Shown here in pieces: positions 1 to 63,895 of a stretch of DNA of 64,000 bases. The translations under genes and the position numbers were made by a program. The notes beneath the pieces were generated by a model that saw nothing but the letters and a program-made list of their open reading frames with translations, was not told the origin of the DNA and ran no database searches. Within the stretch, counting starts at the first letter, position 1; every line of letters begins with the position of its first letter. Origin of the DNA: Chitinophaga vietnamensis (GTDB lineage: Bacteria > Bacteroidota > Bacteroidia > Chitinophagales > Chitinophagaceae). The stretch lies in NCBI RefSeq assembly GCF_902167635.1, contig NZ_CABHMS010000004.1:1-64000 (forward strand), read 5' to 3'.

Positions 1-149
1 GATCTTCTCATCAATCTCCTTTAATCTTTATTAATCCTGTAAAAAAATCCTGGTAATCCTTTCAATCATTATAATCCTGAGCCAAATTAATGCGAGCGAA
101 GCGAGCCTCTGCGCTTTGCGCCTTTGCTACTTAGCGTCTTTGCGTGAAC
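1..149. repeat. Intergenic repeat block (9-nt and 8-nt periodic units)
   Basis: There is no gene here. Bases 20-82 are nearly identical to one arm of the large inverted repeat at 16222-16402, sharing cores such as TCCTGGTAATCCTTTCAATC, and they show a 9-nt rhythm of AATCCTNNN. Bases 107-147 form a second block of 8-nt units (TTTGCGCC, TTTGCTAC, TTAGCGTC, TTTGCGTG) that ends at the stop codon of the FKBP gene. Both blocks lie downstream of that minus-strand gene. Confidence 0.75.
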
Positions 150-14100: not shown

Positions 14101-16218
14101 ATGAGACTGAAAGTGATAATTCCGGTAGTGCTCCTCAGCATCTCCGCGGGCGTGTTGGCTTTTAACAAGCTGGGACATTATGACGACCCTCCCGGTCGTT
14201 ATGAAGTGATCATGAACCTGGTCGGACAAATGCTGAAGGAAGGCCACTATCAGCCCAAGCCGATCGATGATGCCTTCTCAAAAGAAGTTTTCAATAAATA
14301 CCTTCGTAGCCTGGATGTAGAGAAAAAGTTTTTCCTGAAAAGTGATGTGAACAGCCTGCTGCCACTCTCCACGCATATCGACGATGAGCTGAAAGGCGCG
14401 CCGCTGGACTGTTTCCGCCGCACTAACGAGATCATCAAACAACGTGTAGCCGAGGCAGCCGCCATCTACCCGGAAATCCTCTCCAAACCTTTCGACTTCT
14501 CCCAGAACGAACAGGTAACACTGGATGCCGACAAAATCGATTATCCCGCTGATGACGCCGCCCGCAAAGAAGCCTGGCGCAAAGTGCTGAAATATCGCAC
14601 CCTCGAAAAGATGACCGACCTGATGGACATGCGCGAAAAATCCAAAGATAGCGCCACCAAATCCAAAACAGATGCGCAACTCGAAGCAGAAGCACGTGCC
14701 AAAGTGAAACAACTGTACGACCGCTACTTCGAACGCTTGAAAAATAAACAGAACGATAACGACCGCTTCAACCTTTATGTAAATGCGATCACCACTACCA
14801 TGGACCCGCATACCGACTACTTCCCGCCCGACGAAAAACGCGCATTCGAAGAGCAGATGGCCGGTAAATTCTTTGGTATCGGTGCGCAGCTGAAAGAAGA
14901 AGATAATAAGATCAAAGTTGTGAGCATCGTTACCGGAAGCCCCAGCTGGAAACAAGGTCAGCTCAAAATAAACGACGTGATCCTGAAAGTAGCACAAGGC
15001 GATAAGGAACCTGTTGACATCACCGGTTACCCGGTGGAAGATGCCGTGAAACTGATCCGTGGTAACAAAGGCACGCCGGTGAAGCTCACCGTGAAAAGCG
15101 TGGATGGCACCATCAAGGATATCACCATCGTTCGCGATGAGATCGTAACCGAGGAAACTTTCGCCAAATCCGCCATCATCAACGGCGCGCACAAGATCGG
15201 ATATATCTACCTGCCTGAATTTTATGCCGACTTCAACGACCGTAACGGCGCGCGCAGTGCCGACGACGTAGCCAAAGAAGTGGCCAAACTCAAAGCAGAA
15301 AAAGTAGAAGGTATCATCCTCGACCTCCGTTACAATGGCGGCGGCTCCCTCCAGGATGTAGTGCAGATGGCCGGCCTCTTCATTCCGGAAGGCCCGGTGG
15401 TACAGGTACGTTCCAGGGGCGGTGATGCCGTAGTGCTCCGCGACCGCGACAAAAATGTTCAGTATGATGGCCCGCTCGCCATTATGGTAAATGAATACAG
15501 CGCTTCTGCTTCCGAAATCATGGCCGCTGCCATGCAGGACTACAAACGCGCTGTGATCATTGGCAGCTCCCAGACTTTCGGTAAAGGCACTGTACAGCGT
15601 CTCTTCAATCTCGATGATTTCTATCCGGTGAAAGAAGGCACCAGCCTCGGCGCACTGAAACTTACCCAGCAGAAATTCTATCGCGCTAACGGCGGCTCTA
15701 CCCAGCGCAGAGGCGTAGCTTCCGATATCGTACTGCCCGATCCTTACTACGAAGTAGCCGAACGTAAAGACAGCGACGCACTGGCCTGGGACGAAATTCC
15801 CAAAGCCAGCTTCACGCCCTGGTACAACCCGGTGAACGTAGAACAGCTGAAGAAGAACAGCGAAAAGAGATTGGCCGCCAGCCCGGCTTTCAAGCTGCTG
15901 AGCGAAAACCTGAACACCTTGAAGAAAATGGAAAAGCAGGAAACTTATTCTCTCAACCTGCAAACTTATAAGAACGAACAGAAATCCAATACCGCCGCAT
16001 TAAAGAAATACGATGCTGTCAACGATAAAGTGAAAGAGCTCAACATCAGCAACATCAAAATGGATATGGAGAAACTGGGTAGCGACTCCGCCAAGATCGC
16101 CCGTAACAAGGACTGGCTCAAGGCAAGAACCAAAGACTTCTATCTCGATGAAGCGGTGAGCGTAATGAATGACCTGATCGTTCAGACTTATCCCAAGATG
16201 CATCGCAAAGCGCAGTAA
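14101..16218 (+). CDS. Carboxy-terminal processing peptidase, S41A family (Prc/Tsp type)
   Basis: This 705-residue periplasmic serine protease has an N-terminal signal (about 1-20), an N-terminal helical region (about 30-250), a PDZ domain (about 255-345) and the S41 catalytic core. The catalytic dyad is visible: Ser469 in SASASE and Lys495 in FGKG. After the protease core, a long helical C-terminus (about 565-700) matches the Tsp/Prc C-terminal domain. Prc degrades misfolded or tagged envelope proteins and trims lipoproteins or murein hydrolases in other bacteria. The neighbouring convergent gene encodes a second, CtpA-type S41 peptidase. The usual family length is about 680-720. Confidence 0.95.
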   Translation: MRLKVIIPVVLLSISAGVLAFNKLGHYDDPPGRYEVIMNLVGQMLKEGHYQPKPIDDAFSKEVFNKYLRSLDVEKKFFLKSDVNSLLPLSTHIDDELKGAPLDCFRRTNEIIKQRVAEAAAIYPEILSKPFDFSQNEQVTLDADKIDYPADDAARKEAWRKVLKYRTLEKMTDLMDMREKSKDSATKSKTDAQLEAEARAKVKQLYDRYFERLKNKQNDNDRFNLYVNAITTTMDPHTDYFPPDEKRAFEEQMAGKFFGIGAQLKEEDNKIKVVSIVTGSPSWKQGQLKINDVILKVAQGDKEPVDITGYPVEDAVKLIRGNKGTPVKLTVKSVDGTIKDITIVRDEIVTEETFAKSAIINGAHKIGYIYLPEFYADFNDRNGARSADDVAKEVAKLKAEKVEGIILDLRYNGGGSLQDVVQMAGLFIPEGPVVQVRSRGGDAVVLRDRDKNVQYDGPLAIMVNEYSASASEIMAAAMQDYKRAVIIGSSQTFGKGTVQRLFNLDDFYPVKEGTSLGALKLTQQKFYRANGGSTQRRGVASDIVLPDPYYEVAERKDSDALAWDEIPKASFTPWYNPVNVEQLKKNSEKRLAASPAFKLLSENLNTLKKMEKQETYSLNLQTYKNEQKSNTAALKKYDAVNDKVKELNISNIKMDMEKLGSDSAKIARNKDWLKARTKDFYLDEAVSVMNDLIVQTYPKMHRKAQ

Positions 16219-16221
16219 GCG

Positions 16222-16402
16222 CGGAGGTTGTCTTGCTCAGGATTATAATGATTGAAAGGATTACCAGGATTTTTTACTGACTTATAAAGATTAAAAAAGG
16301 ATTCGCGATTGATCTTCGTGAATCCTTTTTTAATCTTTATAAGTCAGTAAAAAATCCTGGTAATCCTTTCAATCATTATAATCCTGAGCAAGACAACCTC
16401 CG
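16222..16402. repeat. 83-bp perfect inverted repeat filling the gap between two convergent genes
   Basis: The left arm (16222-16304) and right arm (16320-16402) are exact reverse complements over 83 bases. The 15-base centre can extend the stem by about 4 pairs. It begins 3 bases after the stop of the first S41 gene and ends 2 bases before the stop of the second. Each arm has a 9-nt rhythm of AATCCTNNN units. One arm has a near-copy at 20-82. It could act as a bidirectional terminator but is far longer than needed for that. Confidence 0.95.
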
Positions 16403-16404
16403 TC

Positions 16405-18012
16405 TCAATCCTTCACGGCCTCCACAGTTTCGATAGCTTTCTTGATCACTGGATCATTGGCGTTGATGGTTTCGTAGAAGCCTTCGGTGCGGTACAGTTG
16501 ACGCGCCAGCATGGCTTTGAGGCGGGCCTTGATCTGGGTTTCGTCGTGTGTATTGAGGTGGTCGAGGCCCGGGATGCTGTCGGTTTTCGCGAAGGTTTTG
16601 TAGTCGTTGAACAGGGCCGGCGTTACCTGGAACTGTTTGGTGAAATCTTCAGCGTTCTTGTACGGTTTGAACTCGTCTTTGTGAGTGGTATAATATTGAT
16701 AGGCGAAATTGCTGAAGGTATTTCGTGTGTACATGGCCGTTAGTGCCGGCGTGAAACGGGAAGTATCGAAGGGCACGAAGATATCCGGGGTGATACCGCC
16801 ACCGCCGTATACGCGGCGGCCGGAATGGGTTTTATACGGCACGGTATCGGTGATACGGATGCTGTCTTTATTAACCAGTTCGCCATGGTTGTAGCGGTCC
16901 ATGAGATCTTCATCATATGCCTCATGGCCTTTGCCATAGGGCTTTTGAATGCTTCTGTCGGAGGGGATATAGTAGCGGGCTACGGTGAGGCGCAGGGCGC
17001 CGCCGTTGCTGAGATCATACTGTTCCTGTACCAATCCTTTACCGAAGGTACGTCTGCCGATGATGGTGCCGCGGTCCCAGTCCTGGATGGCGCCGGCGAG
17101 GATTTCGCTGGCGGAGGCGGAGCCTTCATCGGTGAGGATGGCGAGGGCGCCTTTCTCGAACATGCCGGGGCGTTTGGTTTTATAGTCGGTGCGCGGATAA
17201 TCTTTTCCTTTGGTATAGAGTATCAGTTTGGGTTCATCGAGCAGTTCATCGGCGATGCGGGTGGCGGCGTCGAGGAATCCGCCGGGGTTCTGGCGCACAT
17301 CGATGATGAGTTTTTTCATGCCGGCGCGGGTGAGTTTGCGCATGGCGTTCATAAATTCATCGTAGGTGGTGGCGGAGAACTTGCTGATCTTGATATAGCC
17401 TACGCCCGGAGCGGCCATGTAGCTGGCATCGATGCTGTAGAGCGGTATCTTGTCTCTTTTGATGGTGACCTGTATTTGTTTCTGCTGGCGCAGCATGGTG
17501 GTTTTTACCAGTGATCCGGCGGGGCCGCGGAGCAGTTTGCGGATACGTTCCGGTGTGATGCTGTTGCCCGCAACGGTGCTGTCGTTCACTTTCAGGATCT
17601 TGTCGCCCGTTTGCACGCCGGCGATTTCGGAGGGGCCGCCACTCAGCACAGATACGACGTTCACCGTATCTGCCGTAATATTGAACTCTACGCCGATGCC
17701 TTCGAAATTGCCTTCCAGGTCTTCATTTACCTGTTGCAGTTGCGAAGGGGGAATGTAGATGGAGTGAGGGTCCAGGTGGGCGAGCAGTCCTTCGATCGCT
17801 TCCTGCTGTAGTTGGTCGGTATTGAGCGAATCAACATATTTGGCATTGATCAGGTCCATAATCTCCTGTAACGGACCACGGTTGGGCTTTGTAAAGAAGA
17901 CAGTAGCGCCGCCGGTATTGGATCCGGGCATCTTATGCCCGAGGAACATGCCCAAGGCTAATACGACTGCAAATAAAAGAGGCAAAAAAACATTCAGCTT
18001 CCTGTTAGACAT
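16405..18012 (-). CDS. S41 family C-terminal processing peptidase (CtpA type)
   Basis: This 535-residue serine protease has an N-terminal hydrophobic segment (about 8-25) that is a signal anchor or signal peptide. A helical lead domain (about 45-95) follows, then a PDZ domain (about 100-185) and the S41 core (about 195-370). The catalytic residues are Ser300 in SASASE and Lys325 in FGKG, 25 residues apart as in known CtpA enzymes. The C-terminal 150 residues are helical and hydrophilic. It lacks the large C-terminal domain of the Prc-type neighbour, so the two are different subfamilies and not a recent duplication. The substrate is not known. Confidence 0.94.
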   Translation of the reverse strand: MSNRKLNVFLPLLFAVVLALGMFLGHKMPGSNTGGATVFFTKPNRGPLQEIMDLINAKYVDSLNTDQLQQEAIEGLLAHLDPHSIYIPPSQLQQVNEDLEGNFEGIGVEFNITADTVNVVSVLSGGPSEIAGVQTGDKILKVNDSTVAGNSITPERIRKLLRGPAGSLVKTTMLRQQKQIQVTIKRDKIPLYSIDASYMAAPGVGYIKISKFSATTYDEFMNAMRKLTRAGMKKLIIDVRQNPGGFLDAATRIADELLDEPKLILYTKGKDYPRTDYKTKRPGMFEKGALAILTDEGSASASEILAGAIQDWDRGTIIGRRTFGKGLVQEQYDLSNGGALRLTVARYYIPSDRSIQKPYGKGHEAYDEDLMDRYNHGELVNKDSIRITDTVPYKTHSGRRVYGGGGITPDIFVPFDTSRFTPALTAMYTRNTFSNFAYQYYTTHKDEFKPYKNAEDFTKQFQVTPALFNDYKTFAKTDSIPGLDHLNTHDETQIKARLKAMLARQLYRTEGFYETINANDPVIKKAIETVEAVKD

Positions 18013-30945: not shown

Positions 30946-31062
30946 ATTTAGGGATTTCTTGATTTACGAATTTGAGAATTTAAATTCCATGTAAATCTTC
31001 ATGGAAATTTAAATTCTCAAATTCGTAAATCAAGAAATCCCTAAATCAAGAAATCCCTAAAT
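30946..31062. repeat. Long hairpin of octamer repeats
   Basis: The left arm (30946-30991) and right arm (31000-31046) are complementary over 46 pairs with a single 1-base bulge and an 8-base loop. The last 16 bases of the right arm are repeated exactly at 31047-31062. Within the arms an 8-nt rhythm is visible (GGGATTTC, TTGATTTA, CGAATTTG, AGAATTTA). It starts 3 bases after the oxidoreductase stop codon. Confidence 0.9.
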
Positions 31063-51642: not shown

Positions 51643-52446
51643 ATGAAAAAGATTGCATTATTCTTTACTGCCAGCCTCGGATTAGTGGCTGCCTGTACGC
51701 GAGTACCGATCACAGGTCGCAGCCAGTTAAACCTCATTCCCGAAAGCACCATGCAGTCCATGGCCCTGCAGCAGTACCAATCCTTCCTTTCCGAAAACAA
51801 AGTGGTATCACAGGCTACCAGCAAGGACGCCGATATGGTGAAACGTGTAGGACAACGTATATCCGCTGCCGTTACCCGCTACATGAACGCCAACAACATG
51901 GGCAACGAGGTAGCGAATTACAAATGGGAATTCAACCTTGTAAATAGTAAAGAGGTAAATGCCTGGTGTATGCCTGGAGGTAAAGTAGTAGTATATACCG
52001 GCCTCTTGCCGGTTACCCAGAACGAAACGGCGCTGGCTTGCGTAATGGGTCATGAGATCGCGCATGCGATCGCCCGTCATGGTAACGAGCGTATGAGCCA
52101 GGGGCTGCTGGCACAAGGCATCCAGGTGGCTGGTTCGGTAGCATTGGGCAAGAACCCGACTGCCGTAGGTATCTTTAACCAGGCGTTTGGTATCGGCGGT
52201 AACATGGGCATGTTGGCCTTCTCCCGCCAGAATGAACTGGAAGCCGATCACCTCGGCGTGATCTTCATGGCGATGGCTGGTTACAATCCGCAGGAAGCTA
52301 TTCCTTTCTGGCAGCGCATGGCCAGCATGAGCGGCGGTAATAAGCCACCAGAGCTGCTTAGCACGCACCCCAGCGATGAGCGCCGCGTAGCGCAGCTGCA
52401 ACAGCTGATGCCGGAAGCTATGAAATATTATACGCCACAGCGATAA
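51643..52446 (+). CDS. M48 family metallopeptidase, lipoprotein (BepA/LoiP-like)
   Basis: This 267-residue zinc protease should act in envelope quality control. It has a lipoprotein signal with Cys18 in LVAAC, and the catalytic motif GHEIAHAIARHGNE (about 135-148) supplies HExxH. The third ligand is in QNELEADHLGVIFM, the M48 ExxxD-type Glu. The C-terminal tail STHPSDERRVAQLQQLMPEA is typical. It is Loi/BepA-like but lacks TPR repeats. Confidence 0.92.
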   Translation: MKKIALFFTASLGLVAACTRVPITGRSQLNLIPESTMQSMALQQYQSFLSENKVVSQATSKDADMVKRVGQRISAAVTRYMNANNMGNEVANYKWEFNLVNSKEVNAWCMPGGKVVVYTGLLPVTQNETALACVMGHEIAHAIARHGNERMSQGLLAQGIQVAGSVALGKNPTAVGIFNQAFGIGGNMGMLAFSRQNELEADHLGVIFMAMAGYNPQEAIPFWQRMASMSGGNKPPELLSTHPSDERRVAQLQQLMPEAMKYYTPQR

Positions 52447-52517
52447 ATAAATAACGGAATAAAAAATTACGGCCCCGCCATGTGGCGGGGCCGTAATTTT
52501 TTATTCCGTTATTTATT
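52446..52517. terminator. 35-bp perfect palindrome between convergent genes, bidirectional terminator
   Basis: The arms 52446-52480 and 52483-52517 are exact reverse complements over 35 bases with a 2-base centre. The GC core is ACGGCCCCGCCA and the outer parts are A/T-rich, giving a T-run after the core on both strands. The left end includes the last base of the M48 stop codon, and the right end contains the oxyR stop codon. Confidence 0.92.
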
Positions 52518-57431: not shown

Positions 57432-57573
57432 GGGGATTTACGGATTTATGGATTTATTGATTTATGGATTTATGGATTTACGGATTTGTGGCATGCTTCA
57501 GATCCGCCACAAATCCATAAATCAATAAATCCATAAATCAATAAATCCGTAAATCAATAAATCCGAAAATCCC
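57432..57573. repeat. Long octamer repeat hairpin between convergent genes
   Basis: The left arm (57432-57492) has about seven copies of an 8-nt unit NGGATTTA, with units such as CGGATTTA, TGGATTTA and TTGATTTA. A 13-base loop follows, and the right arm (57506-57573) has the reverse-complement units. The arms pair with about one mismatch per unit. It fills the gap between the esterase and the efflux outer-membrane gene. Confidence 0.88.
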
Positions 57574-63792: not shown

Positions 63793-63880
63793 TTTCGGAT
63801 TTATTGATTTACGGATTTATGGATTTGAGGATTTGGTGGGAACGGCAAATCCCAAATCCATAAATCCATAAATCCAAAAA
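63793..63880. repeat. Octamer repeat hairpin upstream of the efflux operon
   Basis: Left units CGGATTTA, TTGATTTA, CGGATTTA, TGGATTTG and AGGATTTG are mirrored by right units CAAATCCC, AAATCCAT, AAATCCAT and AAATCCAA around a short GGTGGGAACGG-like centre. It is the same family as the arrays at other gene ends, here between the efflux operon head and the next gene end. Confidence 0.78.
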
Positions 63881-63895
63881 TAAAAAAATAAAAAA

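What the first reader, a model, noticed from the sequence alone, without database searches (positions are those of the whole stretch)
16222..16402. 83-bp perfect inverted repeat filling the whole gap between two convergent S41 peptidase genes
Seen: 83 bases are exact reverse complements around a 15-base centre, and the element starts 3 bases after one stop codon and ends 2 bases before the other. A normal terminator needs 8-18 bp. Perfect identity of both arms implies recent formation, gene conversion between arms, or selection for the duplex. The transcripts of both genes would end in a very long hairpin. Inference: it could stabilise both mRNAs, be cut by an RNase III-like enzyme, or be a mobile or self-copying repeat.
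Basis: partly seen in the sequence, partly recalled or inferred. Interest (0 to 1): 0.75.

Follow-up and report, generated by a model that had tools for sequence, protein, structure and literature searches.

The report
Copy of nuclease-linked long hairpin repeat
This perfect inverted repeat is one of about a hundred near-perfect DNA palindromes scattered behind stop codons in a Chitinophaga bacterium, and one copy encloses the genome's only gene for a small nuclease-like protein of unknown job, which hints at a new repeat-and-enzyme partnership.

Summary
Confirmed: 83 bp perfect arms (87 bp with one G·T), filling the gap between two convergent S41 peptidase stop codons. It is not unique: the genome (genus Chitinophaga) holds about 100 copies of this palindrome family. 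Of 22 congeners with the same S41 pair, 21 lack it and C. niastensis has a sibling palindrome (135-nt arms) filling the same gap. Copies lie right behind stop codons (33 of 40 convergent copies abut both stops) and rarely between divergent genes. Arms within a copy are 97% identical, between copies 85%; changes and indels are paired, without G·U excess, so DNA-level arm copying explains the perfection better than RNA selection. The genome's only GxxExxY gene (PD-(D/E)XK nuclease fold) lies inside one copy; across Bacteroidota GxxExxY genes have inverted flanks in 21-25 of 30 loci, against 0 of 29 control genes. Best reading: a REPIN/RAYT-like partnership of dispersed hairpin and single-copy nuclease gene. 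Association shown; mobilisation inferred. Against: no clean empty site, three repeat-bearing genomes lack the gene, no sign that the gene maintains the arms, and four-helix-bundle genes have similar flanks in 17-18 of 30 loci.

The parts
16222..16308 (+). left arm of the palindrome (family ends GCGAAGGTTGTCT..CTCAGGATT; here CGGAGGTTGTCTTGCTCAGG)
16309..16315 (.). 7-nt loop
16316..16402 (-). right arm, 86 of 87 positions complementary to the left arm
16249..16274 (+). family core TGATTGAAAGGATTACCAGGATTTTT, left arm
   Evidence: 102 forward and 97 reverse matches at up to 3 mismatches in the genome, 0 for the backward control
16350..16375 (-). family core, right arm
16298..16331 (.). tip: 11-bp stem, 7-nt loop, then T-run; fits a simple intrinsic-terminator pattern on both strands
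   Evidence: own criterion; the standard scan did not list it
14101..16218 (+). 705-aa S41 peptidase gene (TSP_NTD, PDZ, Peptidase_S41, DUF3340) ending 3 nt before the palindrome
16405..18012 (-). 535-aa S41 peptidase gene (PDZ, Peptidase_S41) ending 2 nt after the palindrome
1..90 (.). half of another copy of the same family, cut by the contig start

Best explanation
The palindrome is a gene-less member of a dispersed family of long DNA hairpins. Shown: about 100 copies in the genome; position immediately behind stop codons; concerted evolution of the two arms; one copy that encloses the genome's only GxxExxY (PDDEXK_3) gene; similar arm-plus-GxxExxY arrangements in congeners and across Bacteroidota. 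Inferred: the arms are the DNA substrate of the GxxExxY nuclease. In single-stranded or cruciform form the stem with its GATT words about ten nucleotides apart is recognised and cut, and repair by copying one arm onto the other (template switching) both keeps the arms identical and lets the hairpin spread, while the nuclease gene stays at a fixed place, as RAYTs do for REPINs. Arm copying around an existing hairpin would also explain why both stops are abutted: in C. niastensis the arms enclose what looks like the old terminator. Behind stop codons the hairpin is tolerated, and some copies (this one included) have a terminator-like tip that could serve in place of the old terminator.
Against: No clean empty site and no constant target duplication was found; the spacer of relatives is replaced, not merely split. 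Mobility is not shown. C. ginsengisegetis (G004) has 81 pattern matches and no PF13366 hit; G060 and G019 likewise have 41 and 20. Arms in gene-less C. ginsengisegetis (median identity 0.845, 18 copies) are not more decayed than in gene-bearing C. polysaccharea (0.830, 42 copies), though C. niastensis (0.918, 14) and the own genome (0.982, 75) are higher; so the gene is not shown to maintain arms. In C. niastensis the arms around GxxExxY match its dispersed family poorly. Five or six of 19 GxxExxY loci in the genus have no arms at z>=4. Four-helix-bundle genes have inverted flanks in 17-18 of 30 loci, so arms are not specific to GxxExxY. The two counting patterns were taken from arms seen at GxxExxY loci, and relatedness of genomes is not controlled; the family-free count (15 against 3 hairpins in 10 and 10 genomes, p 0.036) is weak. 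Two of 62 sibling elements share an own site by both flanking genes and four more by one, so some sites may be old rather than newly hit.
Confidence: 0.47

Rival explanations
1. Host-selected 3'-end element: the hairpin is kept because it ends transcription in both directions between convergent genes or shields mRNA 3' ends; dispersal is incidental.
For: Strong bias to convergent and downstream positions; this copy has a terminator-like tip on both strands; 22 congeners have some shorter hairpin or, in C. niastensis, a long sibling palindrome around a terminator-like centre in the same gap (inverted repeats of 11-42 bp in the other 21).
Against: Terminator-like tips in only 23 of 76 copies on at least one strand, 0 of 24 with the B centre, and in 6 of 62 sibling elements; no G·U excess; sequence families differ by species.
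Confidence: 0.23
2. Selfish palindrome moved by another enzyme (an insertion-sequence transposase or the host's replication machinery); GxxExxY is only cargo that entered one copy.
For: Hairpin loops accept many different contents: B, C and D centres, about 3.6 kb with an 877-aa gene between partner arms (L084), and four-helix-bundle genes elsewhere in the phylum.
Against: GxxExxY loci, unlike S41 loci or random places, are regularly flanked by such arms across the phylum; the genome's only Y1_Tnp gene is flanked by another repeat. Other transposases were not surveyed.
Confidence: 0.25
3. Assembly or sequencing artefact making the arms equal.
For: Six contig ends fall in copies of the family (C3, C4, C5, C7, C9; C13).
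Against: Copies have unique flanks and different, paired arm variants; named draft genomes of four other species show the same type.
Confidence: 0.03

Closest known systems
REPIN/RAYT system (REP doublets with a single-copy REP-associated tyrosine transposase)
   Same: Many dispersed extragenic hairpins, placement downstream of and between convergent genes, termini touching stop codons (passages of PMC3733652), a single-copy partner gene (passages of PMC3116915). Here GxxExxY is single-copy and sits at two fixed sites in the genus.
   Different: Partner has a PD-(D/E)XK nuclease fold, not a Y1 transposase; arms of tens of bp with phased GATT words; GTAG in only 23 of 152 ends and CGTC in none.
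23S rRNA intervening sequences (IVS) with S23/four-helix-bundle gene
   Same: Small gene of unclear function in an element called selfish in the Coxiella paper (abstract read, PMC4990558); four-helix-bundle genes in Bacteroidota also have inverted flanks.
   Different: Here intergenic DNA at stop codons, a different gene, and high copy number.
MITEs and other bacterial palindromic repeats (ERIC, Correia/NEMIS, Rickettsia palindromic elements; recalled, from no call)
   Same: Short non-coding dispersed inverted repeats.
   Different: Nearly the whole element is one palindrome; no parent transposon or target duplication was seen, though neither was searched for systematically.
Inverted repeats kept equal by template switching (yeast; Nematomorpha mitochondria) and long perfect inverted repeats of plasmids with symmetrical indels
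   Same: Arms homogenised at the DNA level (starts of abstracts of PMC8604942 and PMC6649704 in the listing; symmetrical indels in a passage of PMC13155455).
   Different: Here a dispersed multi-copy family with a resident nuclease gene.

Membership tests
REP/REPIN (RAYT-linked) | 20-40 bp palindrome with GTAG or CGTC at the foot | tested here: not met
   GTAG in the outer 21 nt of 23 of 152 ends (both ends in 4 of 76 copies), CGTC in 0 of 152; elements of roughly 170-320 bp. Definition from the abstract start and passages of PMC3733652
REP/REPIN (RAYT-linked) | RAYT (Y1_Tnp) gene flanked by copies of the family | tested here: not met
   One Y1_Tnp hit in the genome; its flanks carry CGCCCCACAGGGGCGG.. 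repeats instead
REPIN-like organisation (works like) | single-copy partner gene bearing the dispersed repeat at its flanks | tested here: met
   GxxExxY once in G000, inside own-family arms
MITE | target-site duplication and matching autonomous transposon | tested here: inconclusive
   No constant duplication seen by eye in 150 listed element ends; no systematic test, no transposase census
23S rRNA IVS | location inside 23S rRNA genes | tested here: not met
   76 copies placed by gene caller: between protein genes or undetermined; no Rfam family reaches its gathering score at this site
23S rRNA IVS | S23/four-helix-bundle ORF in the hairpin | tested here: not met
   The only PF05635 hit in the genome has no inverted flanks by the test
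Intrinsic terminator | G+C-containing stem followed by a T-run | tested here: inconclusive
   Tip of this copy fits on both strands and 23 of 76 copies on at least one, 0 of 76 shuffled, but the standard scan lists none here
GxxExxY / PDDEXK_3 (partner gene) | match to TIGR04256 and PF13366 above cut-off | tested here: met
   Own copy 131.3 bits to TIGR04256 and 128.3 bits to PF13366; P0001 130.8 and 126.5 bits
GxxExxY / PDDEXK_3 (partner gene) | nuclease activity on DNA | not testable with these tools
   Catalytic-type residues conserved; activity not assayed

The most novel reading that the evidence does not exclude
GxxExxY proteins, a family without known function found in 75 of 148 Bacteroidota genomes examined, are the dedicated nucleases of dispersed long phased-repeat hairpins: a REPIN/RAYT-like replicating system built on an unrelated enzyme fold, which cuts hairpins and drives arm-onto-arm copying, so that palindromes grow around existing terminators out to the stop codons and stay perfect.
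Probability: 0.35. Interest if true: 0.85.

Novelty: new variant of a known kind. Interest (0 to 1): 0.66.

Why it matters
GxxExxY is a widespread gene family for which I found no described job, and I know of no described mover for the long intergenic hairpins of these bacteria. Linking them gives the protein a testable substrate and, if right, a second origin of the one-enzyme-many-hairpins arrangement known from REPINs and RAYTs. The family is also natural material for studying how long palindromes survive and stay perfect in bacterial chromosomes.

Tried and rejected
Rejected as a unique oddity: about 100 copies. Rfam: only sub-threshold matches, nearly all to miRNA-type families, as a long hairpin may give by shape alone. 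RAYT link: not supported. Four-helix-bundle link in the own genome: not supported. RNA-structure selection: no G·U excess. Arm decay without GxxExxY: not seen. Empty sites among paralogues: the only flank match among the fetched own stretches was one exact inverted duplication of about 2.7 kb holding the element in both copies. Large-loop copies: L212 holds GxxExxY; L167 (601-nt loop) and L199 (459-nt loop) hold no convincing gene; L159 and L191 (276 and 250 nt) were not examined. Terminator-like centres as a general feature of sibling elements: only 6 of 62 by a strict pattern, 0 of 310 shuffled. GxxExxY in viral contigs: 0, 5 and 1 relatives in three scans. PDB: no sequence match at E<=1; Foldseek nothing at E<=0.001. 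Print: searches for GxxExxY (2 papers) and PF13366 (1 paper) and for Chitinophaga, Bacteroidetes, REPIN, MITE or four-helix-bundle palindromes listed nothing linking GxxExxY to repeats; the ten papers listed for PDDEXK_3 or inverted repeat do not hold PDDEXK_3. Only one of the three GxxExxY/PF13366 papers was opened (PMC8934634, one passage: GxxExxY reported where a cas4 gene was expected). The library lacks most subscription papers.

Limits of counts. The 76 paired copies come from 80 fetched stretches plus the window, chosen from the places that searches listed (roughly three quarters of all copies), so weakly matching copies are under-sampled; 9 motif hits were unpaired. Sibling-species statistics use 80 of the 98 stretches (62 elements). 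S41 loci: the best 30 of 60 matched genomes were fetched. misread loci on the minus strand; redid all 30. G078 (24.4 bits, in a 327-aa frame) was dropped from the Fisher table; with it the repeat-poor group has 7 of 44. L263-L265 (weak or broken hits) were dropped from the flank test. In some searches the flanks of L142 and L271 were misplaced; one search used the right places.

Full report
Observation. The inverted repeat is as described: 83 bp perfect around 15 nt, or 87 bp with one mismatch around 7 nt, filling the space between two convergent genes that both match Peptidase_S41. Its folding energy is far outside shuffled controls.

It is a family. A search of the window's own genome (6.3 Mb, 15 contigs) gave 80 matches from the 40 candidates scored, and the core motif occurs 102 times forward and 97 times reverse with no backward-control match, i.e. 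about 100 palindromes. Of 80 fetched stretches plus the window I extracted 76 paired copies; 9 motif hits were unpaired. Copies share outer ends GCGAAGGTTGTCT..CTCAGGATT and conserved GATT/GGATT words about ten nucleotides apart, with centres of at least four kinds (A; B with AGCCCTTGAAGCGC; C with GATTTATTGATTT; D with a GGAACCCGGGG hairpin). Sibling families exist in C. polysaccharea, C. niastensis, C. ginsengisegetis and C. hostae. The own-family query matched 6 of 35 congeners in the draw and none of 23 genomes outside the genus.

Where copies sit. By a simple codon-usage gene caller, 40 copies are between convergent genes, 31 between codirectional genes, 2 between divergent genes and 3 undetermined; the window's own gene pairs are 12/23/12. 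33 of 40 convergent copies abut both stop codons, 7 one, none neither; 26 of 31 codirectional copies start at, over or within 7 nt of the upstream stop. In the four other species the trend is weaker: of 62 elements 18 convergent, 28 codirectional, 5 divergent, 11 undetermined (gene pairs in the same loci 54/217/59); 5 of 18 convergent ones have both stops within 15 nt, 9 one, 4 none.

History of this site. Of 29 congener loci fetched (best 30 of 60 genomes, own included), 22 have the same convergent S41 pair with C-termini like the own ones; gaps are 90-867 nt. Nineteen gaps under 400 nt hold inverted repeats of 16-42 bp; of the three longer ones, two hold 11 and 20 bp and the third, C. niastensis, holds 135-nt arms with the sibling motif. 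That palindrome spans 452 of 459 nt between the two stops and encloses a terminator-like hairpin resembling the one in the C. ginsengisegetis gap (L118). No congener gap holds the own-family core at up to 5 mismatches. So this copy is specific to the own lineage in this sample and shows no sign of truncating the genes. One relative has an analogous palindrome at the same place, built around what looks like the old terminator. Among 62 sibling and 76 own elements, two pairs share both flanking genes and four more share one closely (66-87% identity), so some positions may be old or favoured.

Why the arms are equal. Over 54 nt, arms of one copy are 0.968 identical (40 of 76 perfect) and arms of different copies 0.849; the own arm is strictly nearest in 44 of 76. 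On an alignment of all arms, 477 changes from consensus occur identically in both arms, 333 in one arm only (154 of these in the twelve outermost columns next to stop codons) and 38 differ; with partners shuffled, paired changes fall to 95.5. 40 of 105 kinds of paired change occur in one copy only. First-spacer lengths agree between arms in 73 of 76. In codirectional copies, oriented by the transcribed strand, G·U mismatches (29) do not exceed A·C (41). This fits copying of one arm onto the other in DNA, as described for template switching (start of abstract of PMC8604942), rather than selection on RNA pairing. Spread of already-equal variants as whole units also contributes and was not separated.

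A nuclease gene in the loop. In C. polysaccharea one copy encloses a 129-aa ORF, a GxxExxY protein (TIGR04256, PF13366). PF13366 is found in 20 of 60 Chitinophaga genomes; the own genome has one (TIGR04256 131.3 bits), and it lies between 65-nt arms of the own palindrome family, closer to the own family than to the families of the four other species. GxxExxY sits at two fixed sites in the genus (7 and 11 loci sharing a neighbour gene, one locus apart), with arms in some genomes and not in others: the gene stays, the arms turn over. Across Bacteroidota, GxxExxY flanks are inverted repeats at z>=4 in 21-25 of 30 loci over five runs, against 0 of 29 S41 loci and 2 of 160 random places. Many arms are phased short words such as CACAGAG, GCAAAG or ACGGAT; ten of 30 phylum loci also show direct repeats.

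Tie between gene and repeats. By pattern counts, 16 of 60 genomes have at least 9 matches to either pattern, 13 of them with GxxExxY; of 44 others 6 have it (Fisher 2e-6). Exceptions with repeats and no gene are G004, G060 and G019. The patterns came from arms seen at GxxExxY loci and the genomes are related, so this is suggestive only. Within gene-bearing genomes, the 14 with armed loci have more matches than the 5 without (p 0.03). A family-free count of long hairpins in 40 kb from each of 10 gene-bearing and 10 gene-less congeners gave 15 and 3 (p 0.036). Arms in gene-less C. ginsengisegetis are not more decayed than in C. polysaccharea, which speaks against a maintenance role.

A rival cargo. 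Four-helix-bundle genes (PF05635), found in 116 of 148 Bacteroidota genomes, have inverted flanks in 17-18 of 30 loci. So hairpins with phased arms may be a broader class in which GxxExxY is one of at least two resident genes.

Effect on the neighbours. This copy's tip fits an intrinsic terminator on both strands, as in 20 of 76 copies, and 23 on at least one strand; the standard scan did not list it. A terminator role is possible for some copies but is not a family trait.

Verdict. Shown: a dispersed, equal-armed palindrome family behind stop codons, with the genome's one GxxExxY gene inside a member, and a phylum-wide association of GxxExxY with inverted flanks. Inferred: that the nuclease acts on the hairpins and drives their spread. 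The comparison with REPIN/RAYT rests on passages of PMC3116915 and PMC3733652.

Noticed in passing
L178 5092-5543 (C. niastensis; same place as L120 = G027:C2): Sibling-family palindrome with 135-nt arms fills the same S41 gap and encloses a terminator-like hairpin: arms seem built around an older terminator.
   Followed up: partly
window 57434-57564, 63799-63889, 30946-31046, 52446-52517: Other long hairpins of different sequence (GGATTTATTGATTT type; 41-bp and 35-bp perfect arms; ATTACGGCCC type).
   Followed up: no
L084 (G000:C4:634000-639500): Two partner arms with the same rare variant flank about 3.6 kb holding an 877-aa ORF and a 123-aa ORF: looks like a palindrome split by a later insertion.
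   Followed up: partly
L085 (G000:C4:665700-668400): One element appears to start inside another copy of the family (nested, truncated).
   Followed up: no
L095 and L096 (G000:C7): Inverted duplication, 100% identical over about 2.7 kb, some 68 kb apart, each holding a copy.
   Followed up: no
L034 (G000:C4:222211-222555): The only Y1_Tnp hit of the genome is flanked by a different repeat, CGCCCCACAGGGGCGG..TATATTGGTAGC.
   Followed up: partly
G000 contig ends C3, C4, C5, C7, C9, C13: Six assembly ends fall inside copies of the palindrome.
   Followed up: no
L147 7046-7508 (C. niastensis): Palindrome with 205-nt arms holding the sibling-family motif.
   Followed up: no
L342-L371: Four-helix-bundle (PF05635) genes of Bacteroidota are also flanked by inverted repeats in 17-18 of 30 loci.
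   Followed up: partly
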